Position numbers and translations under genes: made by a program. Shown here piece by piece: positions 5,801 through 59,790 of a stretch of 64,000 bases of DNA (its first letter is position 1; each line of letters opens with the position of its first letter). This DNA is from Erodium maritimum. Taxonomy: Eukaryota; Streptophyta; Magnoliopsida; Geraniales; Geraniaceae. Where the stretch lies: contig OY997588.1 in assembly GCA_963921825.1 (NCBI GenBank), positions 81,349,043 to 81,413,042 on the forward strand, in the 5' to 3' direction. A model generated the notes under the pieces. The model ran no database searches. It saw only the letters and a list, made by a program, of their open reading frames with translations, and had not been told where the DNA came from.

Positions 5801-6400
5801 GCAGGATCGATCATATATGCCATGACATGTATGAGACCAGACGTCTCGTAAGCCTTATGTTGTACCAGTAGACATCATTCTAACCCGGGGGAAAGATGAT
5901 GCTGAACTAGTCGTCGAAGGATGAGTAGAAGTTAGTTTTCCAAGACAAATCCAGATGACTTTAGAAGTCAATCAGGATATGTGTTTACGCTGAATGGCAG
6001 AGCTTTAGCTGGGAAAGCGTAAAGCAAGATACCATTGCCGAATCTACGACAGAGGCCAAGTACATGGATGCTGCAGAGGCAGCTTAGGAGGCTATGTGGA
6101 TTTGGAAATTCATGGCAGGGCTGGGTGTAATTAAAAACCCATCCAGTCCGGTGAATCCATTTTGTGACAACACAAGGGCCATTGCGCAAGCTAAAAGCCT
6201 AGATCGCATAACAAATCCAAACATGTACTGCGGCGTATCCACCTCATCAGATAAATACTGAACTGAGGTGAAGTGAAGATAACCGATATTGCAACAGATG
6301 ATAACATAGCCAACCCTTTGACTAAGGCAGTGTCACTGCCTGAACATGTTAGACATGTAAAGTCGATGGGGACATATTGGAGTTTAGATTGGAACTAGGG
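2891..6400 (+). pseudogene. Copia gag-pol remnant, copy 1
   Basis: In order: gag N-terminus (2891-3124, NGTNYLDWYRIL), which jumps directly to the gag C-terminal part and stops; zinc knuckle (about 3204-3245, CX2CX4H with the last Cys changed to Tyr); protease-like WVLDT followed by Met instead of Gly (about 3438); integrase (3520-4308, CKVC pair kept); integrase C-terminal part (4487-4756); reverse transcriptase (4845-5174 and 5244-5825); RNase H (about 5990-6240). Lesions include Asn at the first integrase Asp (4027-4029), a stop at the end of the 3520-4308 frame, Lys at the integrase Glu (4324-4326), and loss of the YVDD box at the 5501/5502 junction. No functional product is expected. Confidence 0.9.
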
Positions 6401-6412
6401 CAAGTGGGAGAT

Positions 6413-13164: not shown

Positions 13165-13165
13165 G

Positions 13166-13177
13166 TGGTATCAGAGC
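13166..13177 (+). promoter_or_regulatory. Primer binding site, tRNA-iMet (copy 2)
   Basis: tggtatcagagc one base after the 5' LTR, identical to copies 1 and 4. Confidence 0.92.
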
Positions 13178-14720
13178 CGTGCTACCTTCGGGATTCACAA
13201 GACGGTGTTCAAAGTTTCGGTTTTGCTTGAAAGTTTCGTTTTTGGCATGTTGTTTTGCTAAATTGTTTGATAACATGTTTTAAATTATTGTTTATGGATT
13301 TAATGCATGTAAAATGAATTTTTGGAAATTATTTCAAATCTGGAAATTTTGAAAAAAATTTGATTTTTCGGGTCTCGGGAGCGGGACTCTCGGGGAGCCG
13401 AAACCGGGACCGAAAGGGGCTCCGTTGGACGGAGCTAGGCCAAGCATGACCATTGGATGGTTGATATGCCAAGGCTAAACCGTTTTGTTAGTTATGACGA
13501 GTTTGGAACCGTCATGATGAACTCGAAGATCAAATGTTCAAAAGTTTCATTTTTGAACGGTTTCGATAAACCGAGCATCAAAAAATTTCGAAACTTGGCT
13601 ATTAATTAAAACCGGAAAATCACATGATGTTTGATAACATTCTTGTTTGATAACACGATGTGTGATGTGATGTTGGCATGGTGTACATAATAGCCCCGAG
13701 CTCAATTTAATTATTTATCGCTTTTCACGGCCTGCGAGCCGTTAGAGTTAACGTGTAATTATTCTTTCAAGGTGTGGTCGTCGAACCACTTGTTTTTAAT
13801 ATTTATTTATTCCCGACCTACGAGTCGTGTATTAAATTGTAATATTTTAATCAAGACGAAGAAAGGGCGAAAAGGTCATTTGGTGGCTTTTCGGGTGTTG
13901 GCATCGGCTTGGAGTCGGTGGAGCTCAAGAAGCTAGTGGGAGTTAGTTTAGGGGGCTATTATGTGCACATTTATCGCTTTATGCTTGGTTTAGTTTATGC
14001 ATGATTAATTCTATGTGTTTTAGAATTGCATGCTTAACTTTATTTACCGAGCATATCACCTCACATGCAAAGATAAAATTGGAATTTTAATCCTTGTGTG
14101 TGAACCCTTAGAACCGTCATTGCATTGGATGTAGTTGACGGGTTCAAAGGAAGAATTACATTGGATGTAATTTGAGGCATCATTGCATTTGGAATGTAGT
14201 TGATGTGCTCATCGCATCTAGGATGTGCCAAAGTTTTGAACACAACTGGACAAGTAAAAGCGGGTCATGTCCGATACCTCCCAATCATCAACACCTTACT
14301 ACCTCCCCGTCCTATGGTTGTCGTGCGCATTAGCGGAGCATCCATGGGGAAGCGGGGTAGTAGGTTTGGACGACATATGTGGGTGTCGTGCGCATTAGCG
14401 GAGCACCTACATAGTGACGAGCCATAGTTGAAAATTGGTGGACCCGACTACGATTCTCGGCCTGAGGTTGAGCTAGGGTAACAGATAGGGTAAGTCGTGT
14501 ACATAAGTACATACCCTAGCCAAGAGTCACATTGGATGTGATTGGATGGAGTCCTACCTACATAGCTCGATTAAATGGTGAGCATTAGTTCAGCTTAATC
14601 GAGTGAATCAAGGATCTTGGTTTCAGATTCTAAAGGTTTAGAATTGATTGTTGGTGTTTAAGCTTGACCTTCATAAAATTTATTCAGTTTACTGATTGAA
14701 TTTTATCTGTTGTAGATCAA

Positions 14721-17700
14721 ATGGCAAATTCAGCGAACATTAATAGTTTGTCATTAAAAACCATTCTTGACAGGGTCAAGCTAAATGGGACAAACTATTT
14801 GGACTGGTACAGAATTTTGAGGATAGTCCTCAAGTCTGAACGCAAAGAATATGTCCTTGACAAGGCTGTCTCTAAGACCATATCAGAGTTACATGAAGTG
14901 TCATCGGCTACTGAGAAGAATATCTCAGGGATCTGGGATCCAAGGATATTCTGATGGTCAACAAGGGAATTGGAAGTGGCAAGGGCTGGGCCCATGCGCA
15001 CTTGGCAGGAAAGATGAGACACCTGAGAATGTCTGCTTCTACTGCCAACAGCCTGGTCATTGGAACCGGGATTACAGGAAGTTCACGGCTGATCTGAAGA
15101 AGGGCAGTGGGACTGCGCCTTCATCAAATAGCCTGGATGATCTGAAGAAGGGCAGTAGGACTGCGCCTTCATCAGGAAACCTGGATGATCTAAGGAAGGG
15201 CGGTGGGATCGTGCCTTCATTCGGTATTAACTCTATAGAGCTACATCTCTCTACTTCCAAAGATTCATGGGTATTAGATACCATGACTGAATCTCACACA
15301 TGCACTAATATATGGTGGCTGAAAGTAGGAGAGATTTGGAAAGCACGAAATGGACCTCAGAGTTGTGGCAACTGCTGTAGGATCCATGAGTCTTGCTTTG
15401 CCAAGAGGCCTTGTCTTAGTATTGTATAATGTATATTGCATACCTACTTTTAGTAGGAATATTATATATGTATCCGTGTTTGACAAGGAAGGATATAATG
15501 TTAATATTGGAAATGGAGTTTTCAATGTTTTATGCAATGATATGTTTTATACAAGTACTGACTTGGTTGGAGGATTGTACATATTAGATATGGGTAACAA
15601 TGCCTCAAGTTCTATATATTCCGTTAACACCAAGAGGTCTAAATCCAACGATTTAAACCTAACTCTGTTAAGGCACTGTCATCTAGGTCGCATAAACAAG
15701 AAGCACCTATCAGCACTTCAGAAGTGCGGACTTTCAGGTTCATTCGAATTCCATTCGATCGATAGGTGCAAGGTTTGTTTGATGGGCAAAATGACTAAAG
15801 TGCCCTTTTATCGATCGCGATGAAAGGGCGGGTGAATTATTGGGGATGATACACTCGAATGTGTGTAGATCAATAAGTTCACTTGCCAGGAGGGGTTTGA
15901 GCTACTTTATCAGATTTACTGATGATTACAGTAAATATGGTTATGTCTATTCGCTGAGACATAAGTCTGAAGCTTTTGATAAATTCAAAGAGTTTAAGAC
16001 TAAAGTAGAAAACCAGCTTGACAAAGGTATTAAGGCACTTCGATTGGATCGAGGTGGAAAATACTTGACCACAGAGTTATTAGATCATCTAAAAGAGAAT
16101 GGGATCCTTTTGGAATGGACTCCTCTTGGGACACTGTAGATGAAAGGTGTAGCCAAACGGAGAAATCGGACATTGTTAGACAATGGTCCGTTCCATTATT
16201 AGTTGAACTGATCTCCCAATCTCTTTCTGGGGTTATGCTCTAGAGACGACCGCATTCATAGTGAATCGGGCTTCGACGAAGGGTGTGGAAGGGACACCAT
16301 TTTAAAAATGGTACGGGATGATGCCCGCTTTGTCCTTCCTAAAGATTTGTGGTTGCGAGGCTTATGTGAAACATTTGGTTTCAACTAAGCTCGAACCAAG
16401 ATCTGAGATATGCACCTTCGTGTGGTATCCCAAAGCAACAAGGGGATACTATTTCTACAATCCCAGTGAGAACATGGTGTTCGTCGCTTGGGGTGGGGTC
16501 TTTATGGAAAAGAAGTTTTGTTTCCAAAGACGTCATTGGGAGGACTGTGCATCTCGAAGAAATTCAGGATGGTACAGATCTGTCTAAACCAATTGGCAAC
16601 CCAGTAGAAAGGAGCCAGAGATTGTCGTAGAGTAAGAACCAATTCCTGTTACAATTCTGGAAGGTCCAAGGCGATTTGAAAGGGTCAATCTTCCACCTCC
16701 AAGATATGGTATCCGGAGGTGACAATGAAGTCATGTTGGATCACGATGATCCAGCCACCTTTCAGGAAGTCGTGGATGGGCCCAACTCCGAGTTATGGCT
16801 GGGAGCCATGAGGGAGGAAATGCAATCCATGTCGGACAACCAAGTCTGGGAACCGGTTGATCCCATCAATGGTGTGAGGACCATAGGATGCAAATGGATC
16901 TTCAAGATGAAGATGGACATGGACGGCAACCCTCTGACCTACAAAGCTCAACTGGTGGCGAAAGGTTATAGGCAGATCCAATGGATTAACTATGAGGAAA
17001 CCTTCTCCTTAGTGGCTATGGTCAAAATCAATCCAAATTCTTCTTGACATAACTGTGTATCATAATTACGAGATATGGAAAGTGGATGTCAAAACCGCTT
17101 TCCTAAATGGAAATTTGACTGAGTACGTTTGTATGTCTCGGCCCAAAGGTTTTGACGATCCGAAGAATAAAGGAAAGATTTATAAGTTGTTGAAATCCAT
17201 TTATGGATTGAAACGAACTTCTCGGAGTTGGATCCTTCGTTTTGATGAAGCTGTAATTGGATTTGGCTTAATCAAGAACGAGGATGAATCTTGCGTTTAT
17301 AAGAAGGCTAGTGGGAGCAATATTACCTTTCTAGTTCTCATTGAAAACGACATCCCAACCTTGCACGAGACTAAAGCTTGGTTGAGGAAGTGTTTTTCAA
17401 TAAAGGACTTAGGCGATGCTTCTCATATCTTAAGGATTAAGATATGTAGAGATCGCACCAAGAGGGTCTTGGATTTAAGTCAGGGAACCTATGTGAACAA
17501 GGCATTGAGTAGGTTCTTAATGCTCGATTCAAAGAAAGGACTCTTACCCACTAGTCATGGCATTCATCTCAGCAAGACTCAGTGTCCTAAGACACCTGAT
17601 GAGCTGAAAAGGATGATGAGAATCCTATGCGCCTGGGGGCAGGATCGATCATATATGCCATGACATGTATGAGACCAGACGTCTCGTAAGCCTTATGTTG

Positions 17701-18235
17701 TACCAGTAGACATCATTCTAACCCGGGGGAAAGATGATGCTGAACTAGTCGTCGAAGGATGAGTAGACGCTAGTTTTCCAAGACAAATCCAGATGACTTT
17801 AGAAGTCAATCAGGATATGTGTTTACGCTGAATGGCAGAGCTTTAGCTGGGAAAGCGTAAAGCAAGATACCATTGCCGAATCTACGACAGAGGCCAAGTA
17901 CATGGATGCTGCAGAGGCAGCTAAGGAGGCTATGTGGATTTGGAAATTCATGGCAGGGCTGGGTGTAATTAAAAACCCATCCAGTCCGGTGAATCCATTT
18001 TGCGACAACACAAGGGCCATTGCGCAAGCTAAAAGCCTAGATCGCATAACAAATCCAAACATGTACTGCGGCGTATCCACCTCATCAGATAAATACTGAA
18101 CTGAGGTGAAGTGAAGATAACCGATATTGCAACAGATGATAACATAGCCAACCCGTTGACTAAGGTAGTGTCACTGCCTGAACATGTTAGACATGTAAAG
18201 TCGATGGGGACATATTGGAGTTTAGATTGGAACTG
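14721..18235 (+). pseudogene. Copia gag-pol remnant, copy 2
   Basis: The domain order matches copy 1: gag start 14721-14954, zinc knuckle and protease-like part within 14851-15429, integrase 15350-15823 and 15840-16139, integrase C-terminal part 16318-16587, RT 16676-17047 and 17055-17663, RNase H about 17830-18095, and a tail ending in TDDNIANPLTK about 18135-18165. The shared lesions are Asn in place of the first integrase Asp (15858-15860), Lys in place of the integrase Glu (16155-16157), the YVDD-box deletion (junction 17339/17340) and Lys in the RNase H TEAKY block. An additional frameshift near 15810 is absent from copies 1 and 4 but present in copy 3. Confidence 0.9.
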
Positions 18236-18250
18236 GGGCAAGTGGGAGAT

Positions 18251-19938
18251 TGTTAGTCTTAGTGCCCGTAGTTCAATCCTAAATGTCCAAATGTATATAT
18301 CATCGTTAGCAATAAAATTAAAGCGGCTTTATATTACTTATGTGTTGGAGTAATATATCGATGTGTGCTCTGATCTATGCCCACCATGCGAATAGAACCA
18401 TAGATCGAGATAGATCACACTCGATGGGTCCCTAGTCAACAAAGCTTCACTAGAAGCGACTAGTATGAAAGATGGCTCTTTATGGCTTACGTTCTGTTAG
18501 TTATTGGAATGAGATTCCGGAGTCTGATCATAGATATCATGTGGGACATGATATTGGACGACCCGCCCTGAATATGTGCCATAGATTAAGTCATGAACAT
18601 ATTCAGTGTTGTAGCTTGTCATGTATCCTTAGACCAAGGAGTCTTTGTGATCGCTATGTAGTCAACAACTGAGTTTGACCTGAGCCTAACGTTGTCCGTA
18701 ACAGGGCTTCCATAACGGCCAGGATTGGCTTGGGGACGGGCTACATGAGTGACACGAAAGACGGCTAAGGGATTTATCCCTCATACTAAGGTATGGGAAA
18801 GATATCGGTTCTCGGCCACTTGATCGAGAGTGACTGGAAGAATAGCATGGCCATGCACATGATACTGGGTATCATATCTTCAGTCATCTCACATATCAAG
18901 GAACGGTGATTGAGAATAATAAGGATGACGGCTCTATGCCTTATCTCAATCAGGATATCGGAGATAAAAGGATAATGACAGGGACGACGGAAAGGTTAGA
19001 ATCGACAGGGTCGATTCGTTATGTAGTGTCAGGCAATACTAAAGTCTCGTTAGTTGCCACTTAAATAGGATCAAGTAAAATGGGATTTTACGTTGATCTA
19101 TTGACATGCATAAACCTAAGGGTCACACCGGAGGATGAAACTCATTAACACATTTATGGAGAATGGCCAAAAGGGAGTTGTCTCGGGACATGACCAAAAC
19201 TGGGTTTTGGGTCATGTGCCCGTAAGTGAATAGGACTTCACAGATCGAGACAAGGCTTGGAGTCTTGGGATTGATCGCGTCGGATAATGTTGGACATTTC
19301 CGGTATGGAAGGCATGGAGGCGATGAGCGAATCACGGGACCTTGTTGGAAATGGCCACGGGCCATGTTCCAAGAGGCCCATGAAAGGCCCATGCAACCAA
19401 GGCCCATGGAACTAATTAATCAAGTCTTGATTAATTAGTACTAAGTAAGCAAGACAAGGATTAAGGTGTTGGTGATTCACCACCTAACCCAATCTTGTCT
19501 TGCCATACTTTGTCCTATTTACACCTTACTTGACACCATACTTGTCCCATGCCTTTAGTTGGACAAGTATGGGTTTTGTTATGTTTAAGTCATCTTTTTT
19601 CAACATAACAAACACAAGACAAGAATAGGAAACACATTTTCTCTCCCTCTTCCATGGCCATTTCGGGTTTGGCTAGTTTCCACCTCCATGTTTGTGTTCT
19701 TGAGTCCTCAAAGAGAAGAACTACGTGGCTTTGATTCCCATGTGGATACGTAGGCGTCTTGGAGACTCAAGCCAATCATTCGTTAACCGGTGTTCTTGTT
19801 TTGGTAAGAACTAGTGCTGAATTTTTCTCTTGTTAATCCATTCTTTGTTAGTTGTTTCATGGTTTTAATTGTCTCTTGGTTTTCATTGATTTTCCGCTGC
19901 GAGTTGGTTCATCTCCAACCCTACCTCGAGACCCAACA
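18251..19938 (+). repeat. 3' LTR of Copia copy 2 (chimeric)
   Basis: TG...CA boundaries; polypurine tract aagtgggag at 18240-18248. The first part (to about 18512) carries variants of the copy 2 5' LTR (ttcaatcctaaatg, atgagattcc). From about 18577 to the end I see only the variants of the copy 1 3' LTR (catagatta, cattaacac, ccttgttgg). The switch lies between these two points. Confidence 0.93.
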
Positions 19939-23210: not shown

Positions 23211-24897
23211 TGTTGGGTCTCGAGGTATGGTTGGAGATGAACCAACTCGCAGCGGAAAATCAATGAAAACCAAGAGACGATTAAACCATGAAACAACTAA
23301 CAAAGAATGGATTCACAAGAGAAAAATTCAGCACTATTTCTTACCAAAACAAGAACACCGGTTAACGGATGATTGGCTTGAGTCTCCAAGACGCCTACGT
23401 ATCCACATGGGAATCAAAGCCACGTAGTTCTTCTCTTTGAGGACTCAAGAACACAAAAATGGAGGTGGGAACTTGCCAAACCCGAAATTGCAAGGGAAGG
23501 GGGAGAGAAGTTGTGTTTCCTATTCTTGTCTAGTGTTTGTTATATTGAAAAAAGATGACTTAAACATAACAAAACCCATACTTGTCCAACTAAAGGCATG
23601 GGACAAGTATGGTGTCAAGTAAGGTGTAAATAGGACAAAGTATGGCAAGACAAGATTGGGTTAGGTGGTGAATCACCAACACCTTAATCCTTGTCTTGCT
23701 TACTTAGTACTAATTAATCAAGACTTGATTAATTAGTTCCATGGGCCTTGGTTGCATGGGCCTTTCATGGGCCTCTTGGAACATGGCCCGTGGCCATTTC
23801 CAACGAGGTCCCGTGATTCGCTCATCGCCTCCATGCCTTCCATACCGGAAATGTCCAACATTTTCCGACGCGATCAATCCCAAGACTCCAAGCCTTGTCT
23901 CGATCTGTGAAGTCCTATTCACTTACGGGCACATGACCCAAAACCCAGTTTTGGTCATGTCCCGAGACAACTCCCTTTTGGCCATTCTCCATAAATGTGT
24001 CAATGAGTTTCATCCTCCGGTGTGACCCTTAGGTTTATGCATGTCAATAGATCAACGTAAAATCCCATTTTACTTGATCTTATTTAAGTGGCAACTAACG
24101 AGACTTTAGTATTGCCTGACACTACATAACGAATCGACCCTGTCGATTCTAACCTTTCCGTCGTCCCTGTCATTATCCTTTTATCTCTGATATCTTTATT
24201 AAGATAAGGCATAGAGACGTCATCCTTATTATTCTCAATCATCGTTCCTTGATATGTGAGATGAATGAAGATATGATGCCCAGTATCATGTGCATGGCCA
24301 TGCTATTCTTTCAGTCACTCTCGATCAAGCGGCCGAGAATCGATATCTTTCCCATACCTCAGTATGAGGGATAAATCCCTTAGCCGCCTTTCGTGTCACT
24401 CATGTAGCCCGTCCCCAAGCCAATCTTGGCCGTTATGGAAGCCCTGTTACGGACAACGTTAGGCTCAGGTCAAACTCAGTTGTTGACTACATAGCGATCA
24501 CAAAGACTCCTTGGTCTAAGGATACATGACAAGCTACGACACTGAATATGTTCATGACTTAATCTATGGCACATATTCAGGGCGGGTCGTCCAATATTAT
24601 GTCCCACATGATATCTATGATCAGACTCCGGAATCCTATTCCAATGACTAACAGAACGTAAGCCATAAAGAGCCATCTTTCATACTAGTCGCTTCTAGTG
24701 AAGCTTTGTTGACTAGGGACCCATCGAGTGTGATCTATCTCGATCTATGGTTCTATTCGCATGGTGGGCACAGATCAGAGCACACATCGATATATTACTC
24801 CAACACATAAGTAATATAAAGCCGCTTTAATTTTATTGCTAACGATGATATATACATTTGGACATTTAGGATTGAACTACGGGCACTAAAACTAACA
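23211..24897 (-). repeat. 3' LTR of Copia copy 3
   Basis: On the plus strand it starts tgttgggtctcg and ends aaaactaaca; the minus-strand polypurine tract is at 24899-24908 (tctcccactt as printed). It is 1687 bp and more diverged than the other LTRs (for example near 24187-24215 and 23460-23520), so this is probably the oldest copy. It keeps the segment with the potential splice donor that is deleted in copy 4. Confidence 0.93.
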
Positions 24898-24911
24898 ATC
24901 TCCCACTTGCC

Positions 24912-27900
24912 CTAGTTCCAATCTAAACTCCAATATGTCCCCATCGACTTTACATGTCTAACATGTTCAGGCAGTGACACTGCCTTAGTCAAAGGGTTGG
25001 CTATGTTATCATCTGTTGCAATATCGGTTATCTTTACTTCACCTCAGTTCAGTATTTATCTGATGAGGTGGATACGCCGCAGTACATGTTTGGATTTGTT
25101 ATACGATCTAGGCTTTTAGCTTGCGCAATGGCCCTTGTGTTGTCGCAAGATGGATTCACCGGGCTGGATGGGTTTTTAATTACACCCAGCCCTGCCATGA
25201 ATTTCCAAATCCACATAGCCTCCTTAGCTGCCTCTGCAGCATCCATGTCGTAGATTCGGCAATGATATCTTGCTTTACGCTCTCCAGCTAAAGCTCTAAC
25301 ATTCAGCGTAAACACATATCCTGATTGACTTCTAAAGTCATCTGGATTTGTCTTGGAAAACTAGCGTCTACTTATCCTTTGGCGACTAGTTCAGCATCAT
25401 CTTTCCCACGGGTTAGAATGATGTCTACTGGTACAACATAAGGCTTACGAGACGTCTGGTCTCATACATGTCATGGCATATATGATCGATCCTGCCCCCA
25501 GGCGCATAAGATTTTCATCATCCTTTTCAGCTCATCAGGTGTCTTAGGACACCGAGTCTTGCTGAGATAAATGCCATGACTAGTGGGTAAGAGTACTTTC
25601 TTTGAATCGAGCATTAAGAACCTACTCAATGCCTTGTTCACATAGGTTCCCTGACTTAAATCCAAGACCCTCTTGGTGCGATCTCTACATATCTTAATCC
25701 CTAAGATATAAGAAGCATCGACTAAGTCATTTATTGAAAAACACTTCCTCAACCAAGCTTAAGTCTCGTGCAAGGTTGGGATGTCGTTTTCAATGAGAAC
25801 CAGAAAGGTAATCTTGCTCCCACTAGCCTTCTTATAAACGCAAGATTCATCCTCGTTCTTGATTAAGCCAAATCCAAATACAGCTTCATCAAAACGAAGG
25901 ATCCAACTCCGAGAAGTTCGTTTCAGTCCATAAATGGATTTCAACAACTTATAAATCTTTCCCTTATTCTTCGGATCATCAAAACCTTTGGGCCGAGACA
26001 TACAAACATACTCAGTCAAATTTCCATTTAGGAAAGCGGTTTTGACATCCACTTGCCATATCTCGTAATTATGATACGCAGTTATGTCAAGAAGAATTTG
26101 GATCGATTTTGACCATAGCCACTAGGGAGAAGGTTTCCTCATAGTCAATCCATTGGATCTGCCTATAACCTTTCGCCACCAGTTGAGCTTTGTAGGTCAG
26201 AGGGTTGCCGTCCATGTCCATCTTCACCTTGAAGATCGATTTGCATCCGATGGTCCTCACACCATTGATGGGATCAACCGGTTCCCAGACTCGGTTGTCC
26301 GGCATGGATTGCATTTCCTCCCTCATGGCTCCCAGCCATGACTCGGAGTCGGGCCCATCCACGACTTCTTGAAAGGTGGCTGGATCACCGTGATCCACCA
26401 AGACTTCATTGTCACCTCCGAATACCATATCTTGGAGGTGGAAGATTGACCCTTTCAAATCGCCTTGGACCTTCCGGAATTGTAACAGGAATTGGTTCTC
26501 ACTCTACGACAATCTCTGGCTCCTTTCTACTGGGTTGTCAATTGGTTTAGACAGATCTGTACCATCCTGAATTTCTTCGAGATGCACAATCCTTCCAATG
26601 ACGTCTTTGGAAACAAAACTTCTTTTCCATAAAGACCCCACCCCAAGCGACGAATACCATGTTCTCACTGGGATTGTAGAAATAGTATCCCCTTGTTGCT
26701 TTGGGACACCACACGAAGGTGCATATCTCAGATCTTGGTTCGAGCTTAGTCGAAACCAAATGTTTCACATAAGCCTCGCAACCACAAATCTTTAGGAAGG
26801 ACAAAGCGGGCATCATCCCGTACCATTTTAAAATGGTGTCCCTTCCACACCCTTCGTCGAAGCCCGATTCACTATGAATGCGGTCGTCTCTAGAGCATAA
26901 CCCCAGAAAGAGATTGGGAGATCAGTCCAACTAATAATGGAACGGACCATTGTCTAACAATGTCCGATTTCTCCGTTTGGCTACACCTTTCATCTACAGT
27001 GTCCCAAGAGGAGTCCATTCCAAAAGGATCCCATTCTCTTTTAGATGATATAATAACTCTGTGGTCAAGTATTTTCCACCTCGATCCAATCGAAGTGCCT
27101 TAATACCTTTGTCGAGATGGTTTTCTACTTTAGTCTTAAACTCTTTGAATTTATCAAAAGCTTCAGACTTATGTCTCAGCGAATAGACATAACCATATTT
27201 ACTGTAATCATCAGTAAATCTGATAAAGTAGCTAAAACCCCTCCTGGCAAGTGAACTTATTGATCTACACACATTCGAGTGTATCATCCCCAATAATTCA
27301 CCCGCCCTTTCATCGCGATCGATAAAAGGGCACTTTAGTCATTTTGCCCATCAAACAAACCTTGCACCTATCGATCGAATGGAATTCGAATGAACCTGAA
27401 AGTCCGCACTTCTGAAGTGCTGATAGGTGCTTCTTGTTTATGCGACCTAGATGACAGTGCCTTAACAGAGTTAGGTTTAAATCGTTGGATTTAGACCTCT
27501 TGGTGTTAACGGAATATATAAAACTTGAGGCATTGTTACCCATATCTAATATGTACAATCCTCCAACCAAGTCAGTACTTGTATAAAACATATCATTGCA
27601 TAAAACATTGAAAACTCCATTTCCAATATTAACATTATATCCTTCCTTGTCAAACACGGATACAGATATAATATTCCTACTAAAAGTAGGTATGCAATAT
27701 ACATTATACAATACTAAGACAAGGCCACTTGGCAAAGCAAGACTCATGGATCCTACAGCAGTTGCCACAACTCTGAGGTCCACTTCGTGCTTTCCAAACC
27801 TCTCTTACTTTCAGCCACCATATATAAGTGCATGTGTGAGATTCAGTCCTGGTATCTAATACCCATGAATCTTTGGAAGTAGAGAGATGTAGCTCTATAG

Positions 27901-28350
27901 AGTTAATACCGGATGAAGGCACGGTCCCACCGCCCTTCCTTAGATCATCCAGGTTTCCTGATGAAGGCGCAGTCCTACTGCCCTTCTTCAGATCATCCAC
28001 GCTATTTGATGAAGGCGCAGTCCCACTGCCCTTCTTCAGATCAGCCGTGAACTTCCTGTAATCTCGGTTCCAATGACCAGGCTATTGGCAGCAGAAGCAG
28101 ACATTCTCATGTGTCTCATCTTTCCTGCCAAGTGTGCATGGGCCCGCCCTTGCCACTTCCAATTCCCTTGTTTACCATCAGAATATCCTTGGATCCCAGA
28201 TCCCTGATATATTCTTCTCAGCAATTAATGACACTTCATGTAACTCTGATATGGTCTTAGAGACAGCCTTGTCAAGGACATATTCTTTGCGTTCAGACTT
28301 GAGGACTATCCTCAAAATTCTGTACAAGTCCAAATAGTTTGTCCCATTTA
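24912..28350 (-). pseudogene. Copia gag-pol remnant, copy 3
   Basis: Read right to left: truncated gag (28350-28178), zinc knuckle and protease-like part (28061-27704), integrase (27783-27310 and 27293-26994), integrase C-terminal part (26816-26547), RT (26458-26087, 26052-25759 and 25752-25471), RNase H (25315-25049) and tail. Shared lesions: Asn for integrase Asp (27273-27275), Lys for integrase Glu (26976-26978), YVDD-box deletion (25794/25795). A private stop splits the RT at about 25756-25758. Confidence 0.88.
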
Positions 28351-29487
28351 GGGACCCTTGTGCCAGCCTCCCGGTCAGCAACATCTTAGTGGCTAATTCC
28401 TCATGTCACAAGATTTCCCACATAGGGTAGGCTGGGGATTGAATCTCTAGGCCCGGGGTTGTTCGGGTTCTCCTCCGCTCTCCCAGGTAAGCTAGCTAGG
28501 TGCGCCTCGGTTAACAAAGAAGGCGTCCCTAACTAGGCAAGGTGGTAGGGCTAGGAAGCGCCCGTTGTAGGCCAGGATCAACCAAAGAGGTTCGAGAACC
28601 AGTTACCTCTTCGTTTGGCAACAATGGCAGCAGTTGGCAGATGAAGGGTTCCGATGATCGGTCTTTCTATAGGGCGCGATTAGGACGGAGGACGGGCTTC
28701 TTCCAGATCCTCTTGGTCCGAGTTTGGCGAGGGGGGAGGTTCGGAGGTTCCTTTTTCCTCGGAACCGTTCTAGTTTTAAAAACTCCAAGGTGGGTGTCGG
28801 AGGCGTGGTGGGAGATGAAAGGACAGTGCGGGGGACAGTCTCGAGCCGAGTAGCCACAATTGCCTGGGATTTCATCACGGGGTCGAATTTCTCGATTGAA
28901 AAGACAGACACGAGGGTCGTCGAGGTGGTGGGGGCATCAGTGGAGCCGGGGGGTGATGTGGCAGAAACTGGTTGGATGTTGCCGATGGTGGTTACAACGT
29001 GCAAAGACAAATGAGGGAGGTTGAGGTAGAGAGAACCTTAGAGGAACAAAAAGCTTTTTCCTCCACGTCTACAAAACTTGGTAACATACATTTTATTGGA
29101 GTTTGTTGCATTTTCGTAGTTAGTACTTAAAAAAACTGCCATTTTGATTTAGGACTTGTGCGTGCTTGATTTGACTTGAGTAAGTGACTTGTTCTTGGTT
29201 GGTTGCATTGCAAGGAGCTGAGGTTGAAAACAAGCTGCGTGAAAATAAGTGATTCATTTCATTGTTAATTAATGTGTGTTCTTATTTAGGGGATTGGTGA
29301 TTTTACTGCCCAAGTGAATAATTTGATGTTTTGAAGTCCATCAGCACAGTCATAAACTTGTTGCAAGTGTGTAAAAGGAAGATTTACAGCCTATGACTAC
29401 AGTACACTGCTGAGATAATACCATATTCAGCAAGCTTGCAACATTTTCTTATCAATATTGTACAAAACCTAGTATTACAGATCATCT
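28351..29487 (+). other. Unassigned sequence between Copia copy 3 and the P450 gene
   Basis: No recognised gene. The part 28351-28900 is GC-rich and repeat-like. An antisense open frame at 28603-29010 (135 codons, Pro/Thr/Ser-rich) and a plus frame at 28542-28853 show no domain. From about 29040 the base composition becomes AT-rich, as expected for sequence 3' of a plant gene. Confidence 0.4.
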
Positions 29488-51137: not shown

Positions 51138-51142
51138 AGTGA

Positions 51143-52754
51143 TGTTAGTCTTAGTGCTCGTAGTTCAATCCTAAATGTCCAAATGTATATATCATCGTTA
51201 GCAATAAAATTAAAGCGGCTTTATATTACTTATGTGTTGGAGTAATATATCGATGTGTGCTCTGATCTATGCCCACCATGCGAATAGAACCATAGATCGA
51301 GATAGATCACACTCGATGGGTCCCTAGTCAACAAAGCTTCACTAGAAGCGACTAGTATGAAAGATGGCTCTTTATGGCTTACGTTCTGTTAGTCATTGGA
51401 ATGGGATTCCGGAGTCTGATCATAGATATCATGTGGGACATGATATTGGACGACCCGCCCTGAATATGTACCATAGATTAAGTCATGAACATATTCATTG
51501 TCGTAGCTTGTCATGTATCCTTAGACCAAGGAGTCTTTGTGATTGCTATGTAGTCAACAACTGAGTTTGACCTGAGCCTAACGTTGTCCGTAACAGGGCT
51601 TCCATAACGGACAGGATTGGCTTGGGGACGGGCTACATGAGTGACACGAAAGGCGGCTAAGGGATTTATCCTTCATACTGAGGTATGGGAAAGATATCGG
51701 TTCTCGGCCGCTTGATCGAGAGTGACTGAAAGAATAGCATGGCCATGCACATGATACTGGGTATCATATCTTCAGTCATCTCACATATCAAGGAACGGTG
51801 ATTGAGAATAATAAGGATGACGGCTCTATGCCTTATCTCAATCAGGATATCGGAGATAAAAGGATAATGACAGGGACGACGGAAAGGTTAGAATCGACAG
51901 GGTCGATTCGCTATGCAGTGTCAGGCAATACTAAAGTCTCGTTAGTTGCCACTTAAATAGGATCAAGTAAAATGGGATTTTACGTTGATCTATTGACATG
52001 CATAAACCTAAGGGTCACACCGGAGGATGAAACTCATTGACACATTTATGGAGAATGGCCAAAAGGGAGTTGTCTCGGGACATGACCAAAACTGGGTTTT
52101 GGGTCATGTGCCCGTACGTGAATAGGACTTTACGGATCGAGACAAGGCTTGGAGTCTTAGGATTGATCGCGTCGGATAATGTTGGACATTTCCGGTATGG
52201 AAGGCTTGGAGGCGATGAGCGAATCACGGGACCTCGTTAGAAATGGCCACGGGCCATGTTCCAAGAGGCCCATGAAAGGCCCATGCAACCAAGGCCCATA
52301 GAACTAATTAATCAAGTCTTGATTAATTAGTACTAAGTAAGCAAGACAAGGATTAAGGTGTTGGTGATTCACCACCTAACCCAATCTTGTCTTGCCATAC
52401 TTTGTCCTATTTACACCTTACTTGACACCATACTTGTCCCATGCCTTTAGTTGGACAAGTATGGGTTTTGTTATGTTTAAGTCATCTTTTTCCAACATAA
52501 CAAACACAAGACAAGAATAGGAAACACATTTTCTCTCCCTCTTCCATGGCCATTTCGGGTTTGGCTAGTTTCCACCTCCATGTTTGTGTTCTTGAGTCCT
52601 CAAAGAGAAGAACTACGTGGCTTTGATTCCCATGTGGATACGTAGGCGTCTTGGAGACTCAAGCCAATCATTCGTTAACCGGTGTTCTTGTTTTGTTTTC
52701 ATTGATTTTCCGCTGCGAGTTGGTTCATCTCCAACCCTACCTCGAGACCCAACA
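51143..52754 (+). repeat. 5' LTR of Copia copy 4
   Basis: TG...CA boundaries. It is 76 bp shorter than the 1688-bp form because the stretch that starts with gtaagaac in copies 1 and 2 is missing (junction cttgttttg/ttttcattg near 52694). The palindromic segment near 52308-52334 is intact. Confidence 0.96.
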
Positions 52755-52755
52755 G

Positions 52756-52767
52756 TGGTATCAGAGC
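52756..52767 (+). promoter_or_regulatory. Primer binding site, tRNA-iMet (copy 4)
   Basis: tggtatcagagc one base after the 5' LTR. Confidence 0.93.
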
Positions 52768-54316
52768 CGTGCTACCTTCGGGATTCACAAGACGGTGTTC
52801 AAAGTTTCGGTTTTGCTTGAAAGTTTCGTTTTTGGCATGTTGTTTTGCTAAATTGATTGATAACATGTTTTAAATTATTGTTTATGGATTTAATGCATGT
52901 AAAATGAATTTTTGAAAATTATTTCAAATCTGGAAATTTTGAAAAAAGTTTGATTTTTCGGGTCTCGGGAGCGGGACTCTCGGGGAGCCGAAACCGAGAC
53001 CGAACGGGGATCCGTTGGACGGAGCTAGGCCAAGCATGACCATTGGATGGTTGATATGCCAAGGCTAAACCGTTTTGTTAGTTATGACGAGTTTGGAACC
53101 GTCATGACGAACTCGAAGATCAAATGTTCAAAAGTTTCATTTTTGAACGGTTTCGATAAACCGAGCATCAAAAAAAAAAAAATTCGAAACTTGGCTATTA
53201 ATTAAAACCGGAAAATCACATGATGTTTGATAACATGCTTGTTTGATAACACGATGTGTGATGTGATGTTGGCATGGTGTACATAATAGCCCCGAGCTCA
53301 ATTTAATTATTTATCGCTTTTCACGGCCTGCGAGCCGTTAGTGTTAGCGTGTAATTATTCTTTCAAGGTGTGGTCGTCGAACCACTTGTTTGTAATATTT
53401 ATTTATTCCCGACCTGCGAGTCGTGTATTAAATTGTAATATTTTACTCAAGATGAAGAAAGTGCGAAAAGGTCATTTGGTGGCTTTTCGGGTGTTGGCAT
53501 CGGCTTGGAGTCGATGGAGCTCAAGAAGCTAGTGGGAGTTAGTTTAGGGGGCTATTATGTGCATATTTATCGCTTTATGCTTGGTTTAGTTTATGCATGA
53601 TTAATTCTATGTGTTTTAGAATTGCATGCTTAACTTTATTTACCGAGCATATCATCTCACATGCAAAGATAAAATTGGAATTTTAATCCTTGTGTGTGAG
53701 CCCTTAGAATCGTCATTACATTGGATGTAGTTGACGGGTTCGAAGGAAGAATTACATTGGATGTAATTTGAGGCATCATTGCATTTGGAATGTAGTTGAT
53801 GTGCTCATCGCATCTAGGATGTGTCAAAGTTTTAAACACAACCGGACAAGTAAAAACGGGTCATGTCTGATACCTCCCAATTATCAACACCTTACTACCT
53901 CCCCGTCCTATGGGTGTCGTGCGCATTAGCGGAGCATCCATGGGAAAGCGGGGTAGTAGGTTTGGACGACATATGTGGGTGTCGTGCGCATTAGCGGAGC
54001 ACCTACATAGTGACGGGCCATAGTTGAAAATTGGTGGACCCGACTACGATTCTCAGCCTGAGGTTGAGCTAGGGTAACAGATAGGGTAAGCCGTGTACAT
54101 AAGTGCATACCCTAGCCAAGAGTCACATTGGATGTGATTGGATGGAGTCCTACCTACATAGCTCGATTAAGTGGTGAGCATTAGTTCAGCTTAATCGAGT
54201 GAATCAAGGATCTTGGTTTCAGATTCTAAAGGTTTAGAATCGATTGTTGGTGTTTAAGCTTGATCTTCATAAAATTTATTCAGTTTACTGATTGAATTTT
54301 ATCTGTTGTAGATCAA
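52768..54316 (+). other. Long non-coding leader of Copia copy 4
   Basis: Homologous to 1347-2890, with the duplicated gtgtcgtgcgcattagcgga core (near 53914 and 53978) and the ttgtag/atcaaATG gag start context. A run of 12 A (53170-53181) is longer than in the other copies. Confidence 0.7.
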
Positions 54317-54860
54317 ATGGCAAATTCAGCGAACATTAATAGTTTGTCATTAAAAACCATTCTTGACAGGGTCAAGCTAAATGGGACAAACTATTTGGAC
54401 TGGTACAGAATTTTGAGGATAGTCCTCAAGTCTGAACGCAAAGAATATGTCCTTGACAAGGCTGTCTCTAAGACCATATCAGAGTTACATGAAGTGTCAT
54501 CAGCTGCTGAGAAGAATATCTCAGGGATCTGGGATCCAAGGATATTCTGATGGTCAACAAGGGAATTGGAAGTGGCAAGGGCTGGGCCCATGCGCACTTG
54601 GCAGGAAAGATGAGACACCTGAGAATGTCTGCTTCTACTGCCAACAGCCTGGTCATTGGAACCGGGATTACAGGAAGTTCACGGCTGATCTGAAGAAGGG
54701 CAGTGGGACTGCGCCTTCATCAAATAGCGTGGATGATCTGAAGAAGGGCAGTAGGACTGCGCCTTCATCAGGAAACCTGGATGATCTAAGGAAGGGCGGT
54801 GGGACCGTGCCTTCATCCGGTATTAACTCTATAGAGCTACATCTCTCTACTTCCAAAGAT
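54317..54860 (+). pseudogene. Copia copy 4 gag remnant
   Basis: ATG at 54317. The first part (to 54550) reads as the start of a Copia capsid protein (LNGTNYLDWYRIL, YVLDKA), then jumps to ISELHEVSSAAEKNI, a segment that normally lies about 150 residues later, so the middle of the capsid domain is deleted. A stop follows (54548-54550). In another frame (54447-55025) lie the zinc knuckle (CFYCQQPGHWNRDY, last Cys changed to Tyr) and three tandem 16-residue repeats of the type DDLKKGSRTAPSSGNL. The same junctions occur in copies 1-3. Confidence 0.85.
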
Positions 54861-56182
54861 TCATGGGTATTAGATACCAGGACTGAATCTCACACATGCA
54901 CTTATATATGGTGGCTGAAAGTAGGAGAGGTTTGGAAAGCACGAAGTGGACCTCAGAGTTGTGGCAACTGCTGTAGGATCCATGAGTCTTGCTTTGCCAA
55001 GAGGCCTTGTCTTAGTATTGTATAATGTATATTGCATACCTACTTTTAGTAGGAATATTATATCTGTATCCGTGTTTGACAAGGAAGGATATAATGTTAA
55101 TATTGGAAATGGAGTTTTCAATGTTCTATGCAATGATATGTTTTATACCAGTACTGACATGGTTGGAGGATTGTACATATTAGATATGGGTAACAATGCC
55201 TCAAGTTCTATATATTCCGTTAATACCAAGAGGTCTAAATCCAACGATTTAAACCTAACTCTGTTATGGTACTGTCATTTGGGTCGCATAAACAAGAAGC
55301 GCCTATCAGCACTTCAGAAGTGCGGGCTTTCAGGTTCATTCGAATTCCATTCGATCGATAGGTGCAAGGTTTGTTTGATGGGCAAAATGACTAAAGTGCC
55401 CTTTATCGATCGCGATGAAAGGGCGGGTGAATTATTGGGGCTGATACACTCGAATGTGTGTAGACCAATAAGTTCACTTGCCAGGAGGGGTTTTAGCTAC
55501 TTTATCACATTTACTGATGATTACAGTAAATATGGTTATGTCTATTCGGTGAGACATAAGTCTGAAACTTTTGATAAATTCAAAGAGTTTAAGACTATAG
55601 TAGAAAACCAGCTCGACAAAGGTATTAAGGCACTTCGATTGGATCGAGGCGGAAAATACTTGACCACAGAGTTATTAGATCATCTAAAAGAGAATGGGAT
55701 CCTTTTGGAATGGACTCCTCCTAGGTCACTGTAGTTGAAAGGTGTAGCCAAACGGAGAAATCGGACATTGTTAGACAATGGTCTGTTCCATGATTAGTTG
55801 GACTGATCTCCCAATCTCTTTTAGGGGTTTTGCTCTAGAGACGACCGCATTCATAGTGAATCGGGCTTCGACGAATGGTGTGGAAGGGACACCATTTTAA
55901 AAATGGTACGGGATGATGCCCGCTTTGTCCTTCCTAAAGATTTGTGGTTGCGAGGCTTATGTGAAACATTTGGTTTCGACTAAGCTCGAACCAAGATCTG
56001 AGATATGCACCTTCGTGTGGTATCCCAAAGCAACAAGGGGATACTATTTCTACAATCCCAGTGAGAACATGGTGTTCGTCGCTTGGGGTGGGGTCTTTAT
56101 GGAAAAGAAGTTTTGTTTCCAAAGACGTCATTGGGAGGACTGTGCATCTCGAAGAAATTCAGGATGGTACAGATCTGTCTAA
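54835..56182 (+). pseudogene. Copia copy 4 protease and integrase remnant
   Basis: The protease active-site region reads SWVLDTRTESHTC with Arg where Gly is expected. The integrase frame (54946-55734) has CKVCLMGKM, but its His pair is damaged (WYCHLGRI), the first catalytic Asp is Asn (55453-55455), the frame ends at TPPRSL-stop, and the Glu is Lys in VAKRRNRT (55750-55752). The second Asp (LRLDRGGKYL) is kept. A frameshift follows at LLDNG. The C-terminal part resumes at 55913-56182 (GCEAYVKHL, RGYYFYNPSE). Confidence 0.87.
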
Positions 56183-56270
56183 ACCAATTGGCAACCCAGT
56201 AGAAAGGAGCCAGAGATTGTCGTAGAGTAAGAACCAATTCCTGTTACAATTCCGGAAGGTCCAAGGCGAT

Positions 56271-57840
56271 TTGAAAGGATCAATCTTCCACCTCCAAGAT
56301 ATGGTATCCGGAGGTGACAATGAAGTCATGGTGGATCACGATGATCCAGCCACCTTTCAGGAAGTCGTGGATGGGCCCAACTCCGAGTTATGGCTGGGAG
56401 CCATGAGGGAGGAAATGCAATCCATGTCGGACAACCGAGTCTGGGAACCGGGTTATCCCATCAATGGTGTGAGGACCATCGGATGCAAATGGATCTTCAA
56501 GGTGAAGATGGACATGGACGGCAACCCTCTGACCTACAAAGCTCAACTGGTGGGGAAAGGTTATAGGCAGATCCAATGGATTGACTATGAGGAAACCTTC
56601 TCCCCGGTAGCTATGGTCAAAATCGATCCAAATTCTTCTTGACATAACTGCGTATCATAATTACGAGATATGGCAAGTGGATGTCAAAACCGCTTTCCTA
56701 AATGGAAATTTGACTGAGTACGTTTGTATGTCTCGGCCCAAAGGTTTTGACGATCCGAAGAATAAGGGAAAGATTTATAAGTTGTTGAAATCCATTTATG
56801 GATTGAAACGAACTTCTCGGAGTTGGATCCTTCGTTTTGATGAAGCTGTAATTGGATTTGGCTTAATCAAGAACGAGGATGAATCTTGCGTTTATAAGAA
56901 GGCTAGTGGGAGCAAGATTACCTTTCTGGTTCTCATTGAAAACAATATCTCAACCTTGCACGAGACTAAAGCTTGGTTGAGGAAGTGTTTTTCAATAAAG
57001 GACTTAGGCGATGCTTCTTATATCTTATGGATTAAGATATGTAGATATCGCACCAAGAGGGTCTTGGATTTAAGTCAGGGAACCTATGTGAACAAGGCAT
57101 TGAGTAGGTTCTTAATGCTCGATTCAAAGAAAGGACTCTTACCCACTAGTCATGGCATTCATCTCAACAAGACTCAGTGTCCTAAGACACCTGATGAGCT
57201 GAAAAGGATGATGAGAATCCTGTGCGCCTGGGGGCAGGATCAATCATATATGTCATGACATGTATGAGACTGGACGTCTCGTAAGCCTTATGTTGTACCA
57301 GTAGACATCAGTCTAACCCGGTGGAAAGATGATGTTGAACTAGTCGTCGAAGGATGAGTAGACGGTAGTTTTCCAAGACAAATCAAGATGACTTTAGAAG
57401 TCGGTCAGGATATGTGTTTATGCTGAATGGCAGAGCTTTAGCTGGGAGAGCGTAAAGCAAGATACCATTGCCGAATCTACGACATGGGCCAAGTACATGG
57501 ATGCTGCAGAGGCAGCTAAGGAGGCTATGTGGATTTGGAAATTCACGGCAGGGTTGGGTGTAATTAAAAACCCGTCCAGCCCGGTGAATCCATTTTGCGA
57601 CAACACAAGGGCCATTGCGCAAGCTAAAAGCCCAGATCGCATAACAAATCCAAACATGTACTACGGCGTATCCACCTAATCAGAGAAATACTGAACTGAG
57701 GTGAAGTGAAGATAACCTATATTGCAATAGATGATAACATAGACAACCCATTGACTAAGGCAGTGTCGCTGCCTAAACATGTTAGACATGTAAAGTCGAT
57801 GGGGGACATATTGGAGTTTAGATTGGAACTAGGACAAGTG
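56271..57840 (+). pseudogene. Copia copy 4 reverse transcriptase and RNase H remnant
   Basis: The RT starts in 56271-56642 (CKWIFKVKMDMDGNPLTYKAQL), shifts frame at about 56620, and resumes at 56677 with DVKTAFLNGNL, so the first catalytic Asp is present. At 56934/56935 the residues that should carry the YVDD box are absent: LVL is followed directly by IENN. RNase H (about 57440-57679) contains YMDAAEAAKEAMWIWKF and FCDNTRAIAQAK, with Lys where the TEAEY-type Glu is expected. The polypurine tract aagtgggag is at 57836-57844. Confidence 0.87.
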
Positions 57841-57846
57841 GGAGTT

Positions 57847-59458
57847 TGTTAGTCTTAGTGCTCGTAGTTCAATCCTAAATGTCCAAATGTATATATCATC
57901 GTTAGCAATAAAATTAAAGCGGCTTTATATTACTTATGTGTTGGAGTAATATATCGATGTGTGCTCTGATCTATGCCCACCATGCGAATAGAACCATAGA
58001 TCGAGATAGATCACACTCGATGGGTCCCTAGTCAACAAAGCTTCACTAGAAGCGACTAGTATGAAAGATGGCTCTTTATGGCTTACGTTCTGTTAGTCAT
58101 TGGAATGGGATTCCGGAGTCTGATCATAGATATCATGTGGGACATGATATTGGACGACCCGCCCTGAATATGTACCATAGATTAAGTCATGAACATATTC
58201 ATTGTCGTAGCTTGTCATGTATCCTTAGACCAAGGAGTCTTTGTGATTGCTATGTAGTCAACAACTGAGTTTGACCTGAGCCTAACGTTGTCCGTAACAG
58301 GGCTTCCATAACGGACAGGATTGGCTTGGGGACGGGCTACATGAGTGACACGAAAGGCGGCTAAGGGATTTATCCTTCATACTGAGGTATGGGAAAGATA
58401 TCGGTTCTCGGCCGCTTGATCGAGAGTGACTGAAAGAATAGCATGGCCATGCACATGATACTGGGTATCATATCTTCAGTCATCTCACATATCAAGGAAC
58501 GGTGATTGAGAATAATAAGGATGACGGCTCTATGCCTTATCTCAATCAGGATATCGGAGATAAAAGTATAATGACAGGGACGACGGAAAGGTTAGAATCG
58601 ACAGGGTCGATTCGCTATGTAGTGTCAGGCAATACTAAAGTCTCGTTAGTTGCCACTTAAATAGGATCAAGTAAAATGGGATTTTACGTTGATCTATTGA
58701 CATGCATAAACCTAAGGGTCACACCGGAGGATGAAACTCATTGACACATTTATGGAGAATGGCCAAAAGGGAGTTGTCTCGGGACATGACCAAAACTGGG
58801 TTTTGGGTCATGTGCCCGTACGTGAATAGGACTTTACGGATCGAGACAAGGCTTGGAGTCTTAGGATTGATCGCGTCGGATAATGTTGGACATTTCCGGT
58901 ATGGAAGGCTTGGAGGCGATGAGCGAATCACGGGACCTCGTTAGAAATGGCCACGGGCCATGTTCCAAGAGGCCCATGAAAGGCCCATGCAACCAAGGCC
59001 CATAGAACTAATTAATCAAGTCTTGATTAATTAGTACTAAGTAAGCAAGACAAGGATTAAGGTGTTGGTGATTCACCACCTAACCCAATCTTGTCTTGCC
59101 ATACTTTGTCCTATTTACACCTTACTTGACACCATACTTGTCCCATGCCTTTAGTTGGACAAGTATGGGTTTTGTTATGTTTAAGTCATCTTTTTCCAAC
59201 ATAACAAACACAAGACAAGAATAGGAAACACATTTTCTCTCCCTCTTCCATGGCCATTTCGGGTTTGGCTAGTTTCCACCTCCATGTTTGTGTTCTTGAG
59301 TCCTCAAAGAGAAGAACTACGTGGCTTTGATTCCCATGTGGATACGTAGGCGTCTTGGAGACTCAAGCCAATCATTCGTTAACCGGTGTTCTTGTTTTGT
59401 TTTCATTGATTTTCCGCTGCGAGTTGGTTCATCTCCAACCCTACCTCGAGACCCAACA
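57847..59458 (+). repeat. 3' LTR of Copia copy 4
   Basis: 1612 bp, TG...CA, essentially identical to its 5' partner and sharing the 76-bp deletion, so the deletion predates this insertion. Confidence 0.96.
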
Positions 59459-59790
59459 AGTGATGCGTAAGTATGTAATACAAAGTTACCTGAAAAAACG
59501 TGCTTCGTTACTTCTATTGCAGAGGTTCATTTCTTACCTTAGCTAGGGTCTTCTCACCGCTTTCTACCCACGCCCCTACGTCGTTGTCCGAGCTCCAGTT
59601 CCATTGGCCGGCGTCAACCCTCCCTGCACCTCCCTGCGTCTTCTTGTACCATCGTCATCCGGCTCCCGACTTGCGGTCCACGAATCCCAGCGTCCACACG
59701 GTGAGATTCCGGCGACTTCAACGAGTTCTCTCGCCATCCCTGTCATCGTCTTCAACGAATCCGGTCGACTCACGACTGTTTTGCCCGGAA

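What the first reader, a model, noticed from the sequence alone, without database searches (positions are those of the whole stretch)
51143..59458. A Copia family that moved recently although every copy shares the same dead enzymes
All four copies carry identical inactivating changes: a deletion of about 150 gag residues, the zinc-knuckle Cys changed to Tyr, the protease DTG Gly replaced (Arg or Met), the first integrase Asp changed to Asn (4027, 15858, 27273, 55453), the integrase Glu changed to Lys (4324, 16155, 26976, 55750), and an in-frame loss of the RT YVDD box (junctions 5501, 17339, 25794, 56934). Copy 4 still has a perfect 5-bp duplication and about two LTR differences in 1612 bp. 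Identical lesions in independent insertions mean the master was already dead, so an autonomous relative must supply the proteins. Several lesions are G-to-A, consistent with methyl-C deamination in the master. LTR, primer site, leader and polypurine tract are what remains conserved.
Basis: partly seen in the sequence, partly recalled or inferred. Interest (0 to 1): 0.78.

Follow-up and report, generated by a model that had tools for sequence, protein, structure and literature searches.

The report
Dead Copia family copied by relative
A plant genome holds thousands of copies of a jumping gene whose own enzymes are broken in the same places, yet it kept jumping until very recently, most likely by borrowing the enzymes of a closely related family that is still intact.

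Summary
In detail: all four window copies carry the listed lesions. The RT-box deletion junction occurs 4,082 times exactly, the gag junction 3,391 and the integrase Glu-to-Lys context 3,284, reversed controls 0. Deleted copies sampled form one clade without reading-frame constraint; YVDD-bearing relatives are constrained. Twelve LTR pairs, the closest to copy 4, differ by 0-2 bases; ten have different perfect target duplications. All 16 LTR-chosen loci that read into RT lack the box. So the family was dead and still moving. A young coding-intact relative exists: 39 scored places stop-free, 342 exact copies of its YVDD context, LTR start 96% identical, same primer site. It is the best helper candidate; its action is inferred. 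New: the copies are mosaics, and one basal copy keeps both integrase residues, so decay was probably stepwise. Wheat RLC_Angela pairs (PMC9744471) are a close precedent: a new member of a known kind.

The parts
51138..51142 (.). left target-site duplication AGTGA of copy 4
51143..52754 (+). copy 4, 5' LTR (1612 bp, TG...CA; lacks 76 bp present in the other window LTRs)
52756..52768 (+). primer-binding site (TGGTATCAGAGCC; initiator-Met-tRNA type, a recalled label), same in the intact relative
52755..54316 (+). untranslated leader of copy 4
54317..54550 (+). gag remnant; 411 nt (137 codons) absent after codon 48 against the relative L096 (junction 27-mer at 54449-54475, 3,391 exact copies in the genome)
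   Evidence: (weak, below Pfam cut-off)
54669..54671 (+). zinc-knuckle last Cys replaced by Tyr
54879..54881 (+). protease Gly of DTG replaced (Arg here and in c3; Met in c1 and c2)
54925..55734 (+). integrase remnant (Pfam gag_pre-integrs, rve)
55453..55455 (+). first catalytic Asp replaced by Asn
55732..55734 (+). shared in-frame stop codon (27 of 28 readable deleted copies)
55750..55752 (+). catalytic Glu replaced by Lys (27-mer context: 3,284 exact copies)
55126..56279 (+). mosaic block: 26 successive informative sites group c1 with c4 and c2 with c3, against the grouping on both sides
55901..56182 (+). integrase C-terminal SH3-like piece, other frame
56226..57258 (+). reverse transcriptase remnant in two frames (Pfam RVT_2)
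56932..56937 (+). junction of the in-frame loss of the RT YVDD box (27-mer context: 4,082 exact copies)
57832..57846 (+). polypurine tract (differs at two bases from that of most other copies read)
57847..59458 (+). copy 4, 3' LTR (2 differences from the 5' LTR)
59459..59463 (.). right target-site duplication AGTGA of copy 4
1..8100 (+). copy 1 (5' LTR cut by the window edge; 3' LTR 6413-8100)
11477..19938 (+). copy 2 (LTRs 11477-13164 and 18251-19938; no target duplication)
23211..28351 (-). copy 3 (3' LTR 23211-24897; 5' part missing)

Best explanation
This is a large non-autonomous Copia family. A single ancestor lost its RT catalytic box (with a shared stop codon; gag and protease damage is shared by the four window copies), and its integrase residues probably decayed afterwards. 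It keeps working cis parts: LTR ends, primer site, leader and polypurine tract. Its RNA is most likely packaged, reverse transcribed and integrated by the proteins of a closely related, coding-intact young Copia family in the same genome. Pairs of dead RNAs are probably packaged together and recombine by template switching, which makes the copies mosaics. Shown: lesions in thousands of copies, one clade in the sample, no frame constraint in the piece tested, recent insertions with new target duplications, an intact relative with matching cis parts, recombination. Inferred: transcription from its own LTRs, packaging and mobilisation in trans, and which family supplies the proteins.
For: 4,082, 3,391 and 3,284 exact copies of three lesion contexts, reversed controls 0; 57 of the first 100 listed RT-junction places carry both other 27-mers exactly at the expected offsets; residue census 26/28 and 27/28. 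The 32 deleted rows are one side of a branch, SH-aLRT 100, with many near-zero branches. dN/dS 0.75 in the coding frame against 0.73 and 0.82 in wrong frames for deleted copies, but 0.43 against 0.97 and 0.97 for YVDD relatives (up to 200 sampled pairs a group). 12 LTR pairs (copy 4 included): 5 identical, 5 with one and 2 with two differences; 10 of 12 perfect target duplications, all different; all 16 LTR-chosen loci that read into RT (copy 4 included) lack the box. Intact relative: 39 of 54 scored places stop-free at 92% protein identity to the query, 31 with one identical score; the 40 best of 2,350 LTR-start candidates identical over 666 bp; 342 exact copies of its YVDD context. One member read: LTR start 96.0%, LTR end plus leader 90.4%, integrase and RT 87.2% identical to copy 4, same PBS and LTR ends; its PPT equals that of 25 of the 26 deleted loci read there, copy 4's own differs at two bases. 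Mosaic: 44 informative sites in 3 runs where 22 are expected, P<1e-4; PHI-like test P=0.0002.
Against: No expression, packaging or transposition data. One member of the intact family was read in pieces (L097-L100), and its LTR-pair age was not measured. The intact family is not in the tree. The loci were chosen by their RT state. The 12 LTR pairs come from the 40 best of 1,794 candidates and so lean young. Copy 2 lacks a target duplication, and so does L017/L018. Tandem spacing of about 6.77 kb appears in 7 of 99 neighbouring gaps, so some copies arose by duplication. LTR start and leader are closer to the intact family than coding is, but against fourfold sites the LTR contrast is weak (P 0.004 to 0.08).
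Confidence: 0.85

Rival explanations
1. The copies spread by segmental or tandem DNA duplication of one insertion, not by retrotransposition, so shared lesions are simply inherited.
For: 7 of 99 neighbouring junctions lie 6,768-6,782 bp apart, as in LTR-sharing arrays; L020 is an LTR between two internal regions; copy 2 has no target duplication.
Against: 10 of 12 LTR pairs have perfect target duplications, each of a different sequence, on several chromosomes.
Confidence: 0.04
2. Lesions arose once and were spread among already integrated copies by ectopic gene conversion (concerted evolution), so the family need not have been dead when it inserted.
For: Mosaic blocks exist, and conversion could make them; c2 and c3 lie 3.3 kb apart.
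Against: LTR pairs identical over 1,688 bp next to the RT lesion leave little time; lesion contexts number in the thousands; the basal copy L053 keeps older integrase states.
Confidence: 0.05
3. The family is mobilised in trans, but by another Copia family than the young intact one found here (for example the older YVDD relatives, or an unseen one).
For: PMC9744471 (passages) reports a suggested helper with very little sequence homology; 588 places carry a YVDD box after a similar context, up to 3 mismatches.
Against: The two older relatives dated have LTR differences of about 9/502 (my estimate from bit scores, presumed pair) and 5/377, and LTR starts of YVDD loci have a median identity of 85.9% to the young family's (range 81.6-96.0, 25 of 29 loci); the dead LTR start matches the young family's at 96%.
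Confidence: 0.25
4. Dead members re-enter transposition mainly by recombining with live members during reverse transcription (as reported for ONSEN), rather than as whole dead RNAs.
For: Recombination within the dead clade is strong; dead LTR start and leader are closer to the intact family than coding sites are.
Against: All 32 deleted rows stay on one side of a branch in the SH3-RT piece; 57 of 100 listed places keep all three lesion contexts together.
Confidence: 0.1

Closest known systems
Wheat RLC_Angela non-autonomous sub-families with autonomous partners (PMC9744471; passages and section 2.6)
   Same: Dead copies similar in size to intact ones, degenerate coding sequence, over 85% identical in DNA, monophyletic, paired by LTR similarity and age.
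   Different: Unnamed plant genome here; particular catalytic lesions shared by nearly every copy sampled; mosaics and a basal copy with both integrase residues; 342 counted intact contexts against 4,082 dead junctions (patterns of different length, so a rough ratio).
BARE-2/BARE-1 of barley (seen only as a passage in PMC9744471; otherwise recalled)
   Same: Defective Copia thought to use a relative's protein.
   Different: BARE-2 has only gag broken; here gag, protease, integrase and RT are broken in all four window copies.
ONSEN intra-family recombination in Arabidopsis (PMC5668417; abstract)
   Same: Pairwise recombination between members of one LTR retrotransposon family during bursts.
   Different: Observed experimentally there; inferred here from site patterns, among enzyme-dead copies.
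TARE1 of tomato (PMC3701649; abstract)
   Same: A mutated Copia-like family that amplified recently from a changed source.
   Different: Its defining mutation is in the LTR end; 354 copies.
TRIM and LARD elements (recalled)
   Same: Non-autonomous elements using LTR, PBS and PPT only.
   Different: Those lack coding sequence; this family keeps most of a degenerate gag-pol.

Membership tests
Ty1/Copia LTR retrotransposon | integrase upstream of reverse transcriptase, Copia-type RT (RVT_2) | tested here: met
   Pfam gag_pre-integrs/rve at 54925-55734, RVT_2 within 56226-57258
Ty1/Copia LTR retrotransposon | TG...CA LTRs, PBS, PPT, 5-bp target duplication | tested here: met
   copy 4 and 9 of 11 other LTR pairs; copy 2 fails on the duplication
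non-autonomous LTR retrotransposon family | no member encodes the enzymes | tested here: inconclusive
   16 of 16 loci chosen by LTR alone lack the RT box. The 30 junction loci were selected for the deletion and do not count. Not every genomic copy was read.
non-autonomous LTR retrotransposon family | recent transposition despite that | tested here: met
   5 of 12 LTR pairs identical, 10 of 12 with target duplications
non-autonomous LTR retrotransposon family | coding-intact relative with matching PBS, LTR ends and youth | tested here: met
   one member of the young intact family read: PBS and LTR ends match; youth inferred from the 40 best LTR starts being identical, its LTR pairs were not compared
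non-autonomous LTR retrotransposon family | mobilisation in trans demonstrated | not testable with these tools
   needs expression or particle data
TRIM/LARD | no coding remnants (recalled definition) | tested here: not met
   integrase and RT remnants in Pfam
Angela lineage of plant Copia | phylogenetic placement of RT | not tested
   no reference Copia set was used; the resemblance is recalled

The most novel reading that the evidence does not exclude
The dead family is not merely tolerated: freed from coding, it is a better template than its helper (about 12 dead junctions counted per intact context) and stays compatible by repeatedly exchanging LTR and leader sequence with the helper through co-packaged RNAs, so dead and live families evolve as one recombining cis pool with two coding fates.
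Probability: 0.3. Interest if true: 0.65.

Novelty: new member of a known kind. Interest (0 to 1): 0.45.

Why it matters
It is a clean, countable case of parasitism among retrotransposons: enzyme death of single origin in the sample, catalytic lesions shared by thousands of copies, a likely helper in the same genome, recent movement and mosaic copies. Because deleted and intact relatives differ by clear markers, the system lets one ask how a dead element keeps pace with its helper and what cis sequence is enough for packaging.

Tried and rejected
Looked for relatives in viral contigs and bacterial/archaeal contigs: no Copia relative found; L001 is a chance match in a contig with phage-like genes. 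The PDB search with the RT piece gave one chance match.

First thought that intact-family LTR and coding trees conflict outright (integrase and RT identity: older relatives about 92%, dead 87%; LTR start: dead 96%, older 86%). The third- and fourfold-site control removed most of this: three rows cannot show a topology conflict, at third positions the intact family is slightly closer to the dead one than to L068, and dead:older private changes differ between LTR and fourfold sites only at P 0.004 to 0.08 (third positions P 1e-5 to 6e-4, which relaxed selection could explain). Kept as a suggestion, not a result.

G-to-A bias: not supported, though the changes are not polarised. The near-fixed nonsynonymous share (52 of 72) was not used, because the filter favours conserved codons. 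The window copies alone give pN/pS of 0.59-0.79, which says little without the frame control.
Full report
What is there. Four copies of one LTR element lie in the window. Copy 4 (51143-59458) is complete, with AGTGA on both sides and 2 differences between LTRs of 1612 bp. Copy 1 is cut by the window edge, copy 2 has both LTRs, copy 3 is cut inside gag. Pfam finds gag_pre-integrs, rve, an integrase SH3 piece and RVT_2, in that order, with zinc-knuckle and gag hits below their cut-offs: a Copia order. The frames are broken in several places.

Lesions. The first integrase Asp is Asn and the catalytic Glu is Lys in all four copies, and the RT box is lost in frame in all four. The Ty1 integrase structure 7z0h aligns its Asp to the Asn. 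Against L096, 411 nt of gag are missing after codon 48.

The genome. The window lies on contig C1 of a 763-Mb genome. The RT-deletion junction occurs 4,082 times exactly, control 0; the Glu-to-Lys context 3,284 times; the gag junction 3,391 times. Of the first 100 RT-junction places listed, 67 carry the exact Glu-to-Lys 27-mer at the expected distance, 67 the gag 27-mer, 57 both; the reasons for the misses were not examined. Of 30 loci fetched by the junction, 28 could be read in integrase: Asn 26, Ile 1, Asp 1; Lys 27, Glu 1; the shared stop 27 of 28. Of 30 loci fetched by the YVDD pattern, 29 match this family's RT and 27 could be read in integrase: Asp in 23 of the 24 aligned at that position, Glu in 26 of 27. 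These loci were chosen by RT state and, for the second set, by at most 3 mismatches to a family context, so other types could be missed.

One origin, then neutrality. In a quick tree of the SH3-RT piece (59 rows; L040, L061, L066 and L076 left out as too short) the 32 deleted rows are one side of a branch with support 100. One YVDD row (L079) branches next to them; the young intact family is not in this tree. Many deleted rows have near-zero branches, as after a recent burst. dN/dS among deleted copies (33 rows, L053 dropped) is 0.75 in the coding frame and 0.73 and 0.82 in the two wrong frames. Among YVDD relatives it is 0.43 against 0.97 and 0.97, and among seven relatives with long open frames 0.34 against 1.17 and 0.99 (200 sampled pairs for the two large groups; codons with stops, gaps or three differences skipped). 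The deleted clade shows no coding constraint in this piece; gag was not tested.

Stepwise death. L053 is the earliest branch of the deleted clade. It has the RT deletion and the stop but keeps Asp and Glu in integrase, and its integrase is closer to copy 4 (91.4%) than the intact family is to it (85.8%). So the RT loss probably came before the integrase changes and the lineage kept multiplying in between. This rests on one copy; a recombinant origin is not excluded.

Recent movement. From the 40 best of 1,794 LTR candidates, 30 loci were fetched, giving 12 LTR pairs, copy 4 among them: 5 identical, 5 with one difference, 2 with two; 10 with perfect 5-bp duplications, all different. One exception (L020/L019) involves an LTR shared in a tandem; the other (L017/L018) has identical LTRs but no duplication. 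One solo LTR has its own duplication (L025); L011 looks solo without one. At 1.3e-8 per site per year (a recalled rice rate, uncertain here) these pairs are 0 to 0.05 million years old. The sample leans young. All 16 loci that read inward from an LTR with a polypurine tract lack the RT box (15 with the exact junction, L018 with a variant of it), although chosen by LTR alone; one is copy 4.

Mosaics. Along copies 1-4, 44 informative sites fall into three runs: 7 sites grouping 1+2 and 3+4, then 26 sites (55126-56279) grouping 1+4 and 2+3, then 11 sites grouping 1+2 and 3+4 again, the last run reaching into the 3' LTR. Shuffles average 22 runs, and none of 20,000 reached 3. Over 28 deleted rows (L038, L039, L040, L043, L053, L061 dropped) and 55 sites, 998 of 1,485 site pairs fail the four-gamete test, and incompatibility drops for close neighbours (P=0.0002). 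At 15 diagnostic integrase sites 17 of 28 readable loci carry only copy-4 states, 11 are mixed and none is purely of the other type. Template switching in particles fits; gene conversion between integrated copies is not excluded.

The likely helper. A search with an open piece of one YVDD relative scored 54 of 33,233 candidates: 39 at 92% identity, none of the 39 with stops inside, 31 with one identical score, 34 in an open frame of 1,350 codons; of the other 15 places 4 are stop-free. Pieces of one member of the 92% group (L097-L100) show LTR start 96.0% identical to copy 4, LTR end plus leader 90.4%, integrase and RT 87.2%, the same PBS, LTR ends and following bases, Asp, Glu and YVDD present. 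Its polypurine tract equals that of 25 of 26 deleted loci read (4 of 30 not read by that filter); copy 4's differs at two bases. The 40 best of 2,350 LTR-start candidates are identical over 666 bp. A 33-mer with its YVDD box occurs 342 times, not shown to be exclusive to it. Older YVDD relatives have LTR starts with median 85.9% identity to the young family (range 81.6-96.0, 25 of 29 loci) and, in two cases, older LTR pairs (about 9/502 by my estimate from bit scores; 5/377). The young intact family is therefore the best helper candidate. That it supplies the proteins is inferred.

Against and unclear. Some copies come from tandem duplication: 7 of 99 neighbouring gaps are 6.77-6.78 kb. Copy 2 has no target duplication, more private changes in its 5' LTR than in its 3' LTR, and a 3' LTR nearer to copy 1; a recombination between two insertions is likely but not shown. 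LTR and leader exchange with the intact family is only suggested.

What is known. PMC9744471 (passages; section 2.6) describes wheat RLC_Angela elements that are similar in size to autonomous partners, degenerate, over 85% identical, monophyletic and matched by LTR. This finding is the same kind of system in another genome. Recombination within an LTR retrotransposon family is known from ONSEN (PMC5668417, abstract). PMC1950507 (template switching) and PMC7215508 (tandem arrays) were seen as search listings only. The additions here are the counts, the shared catalytic lesions, the stepwise copy and the mosaics.

Noticed in passing
window 11472-11481 and 19934-19943: Copy 2 lacks a target duplication and its two LTRs differ at 15 of 1688 sites, mostly private to the 5' LTR; a frame that looks LINE-like to me (no Pfam hit) runs up to its left edge and a zf-RVT frame lies on its right, as if two insertions had recombined.
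   Followed up: partly
window 37216-49311: A Gypsy element on the minus strand with long open frames (RVT_1, RNase H, integrase) between terminal repeats of about 3 kb that contain tandem repeats.
   Followed up: no
window 31855-32967: A cytochrome P450 frame (Pfam p450) on the minus strand near copy 3; a further P450-like frame at 29529-30200 was not tested.
   Followed up: no
G000 C1:14735614-14749194 and C1:42503052-42528946: Tandem arrays of the dead element (spacing mostly 6768-6777 bp); the intact family's listing shows similar 7264-bp spacing.
   Followed up: partly
G000 C1:0-43.9 Mb: Among the first 100 listed dead junctions, density is about six times higher at 30-43.9 Mb than at 0-30 Mb of contig C1; the first listed intact-family places are spread along the contig.
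   Followed up: no
L094 1639-3027: A dead-type LTR (98.3% over 1389 bp) lies just after the RT of a YVDD-bearing relative, probably a nested insertion.
   Followed up: no
window 60293-60913: A frame with DUF4283 and zf-CCHC_4, as in LINE elements (recalled), right of copy 4.
   Followed up: no
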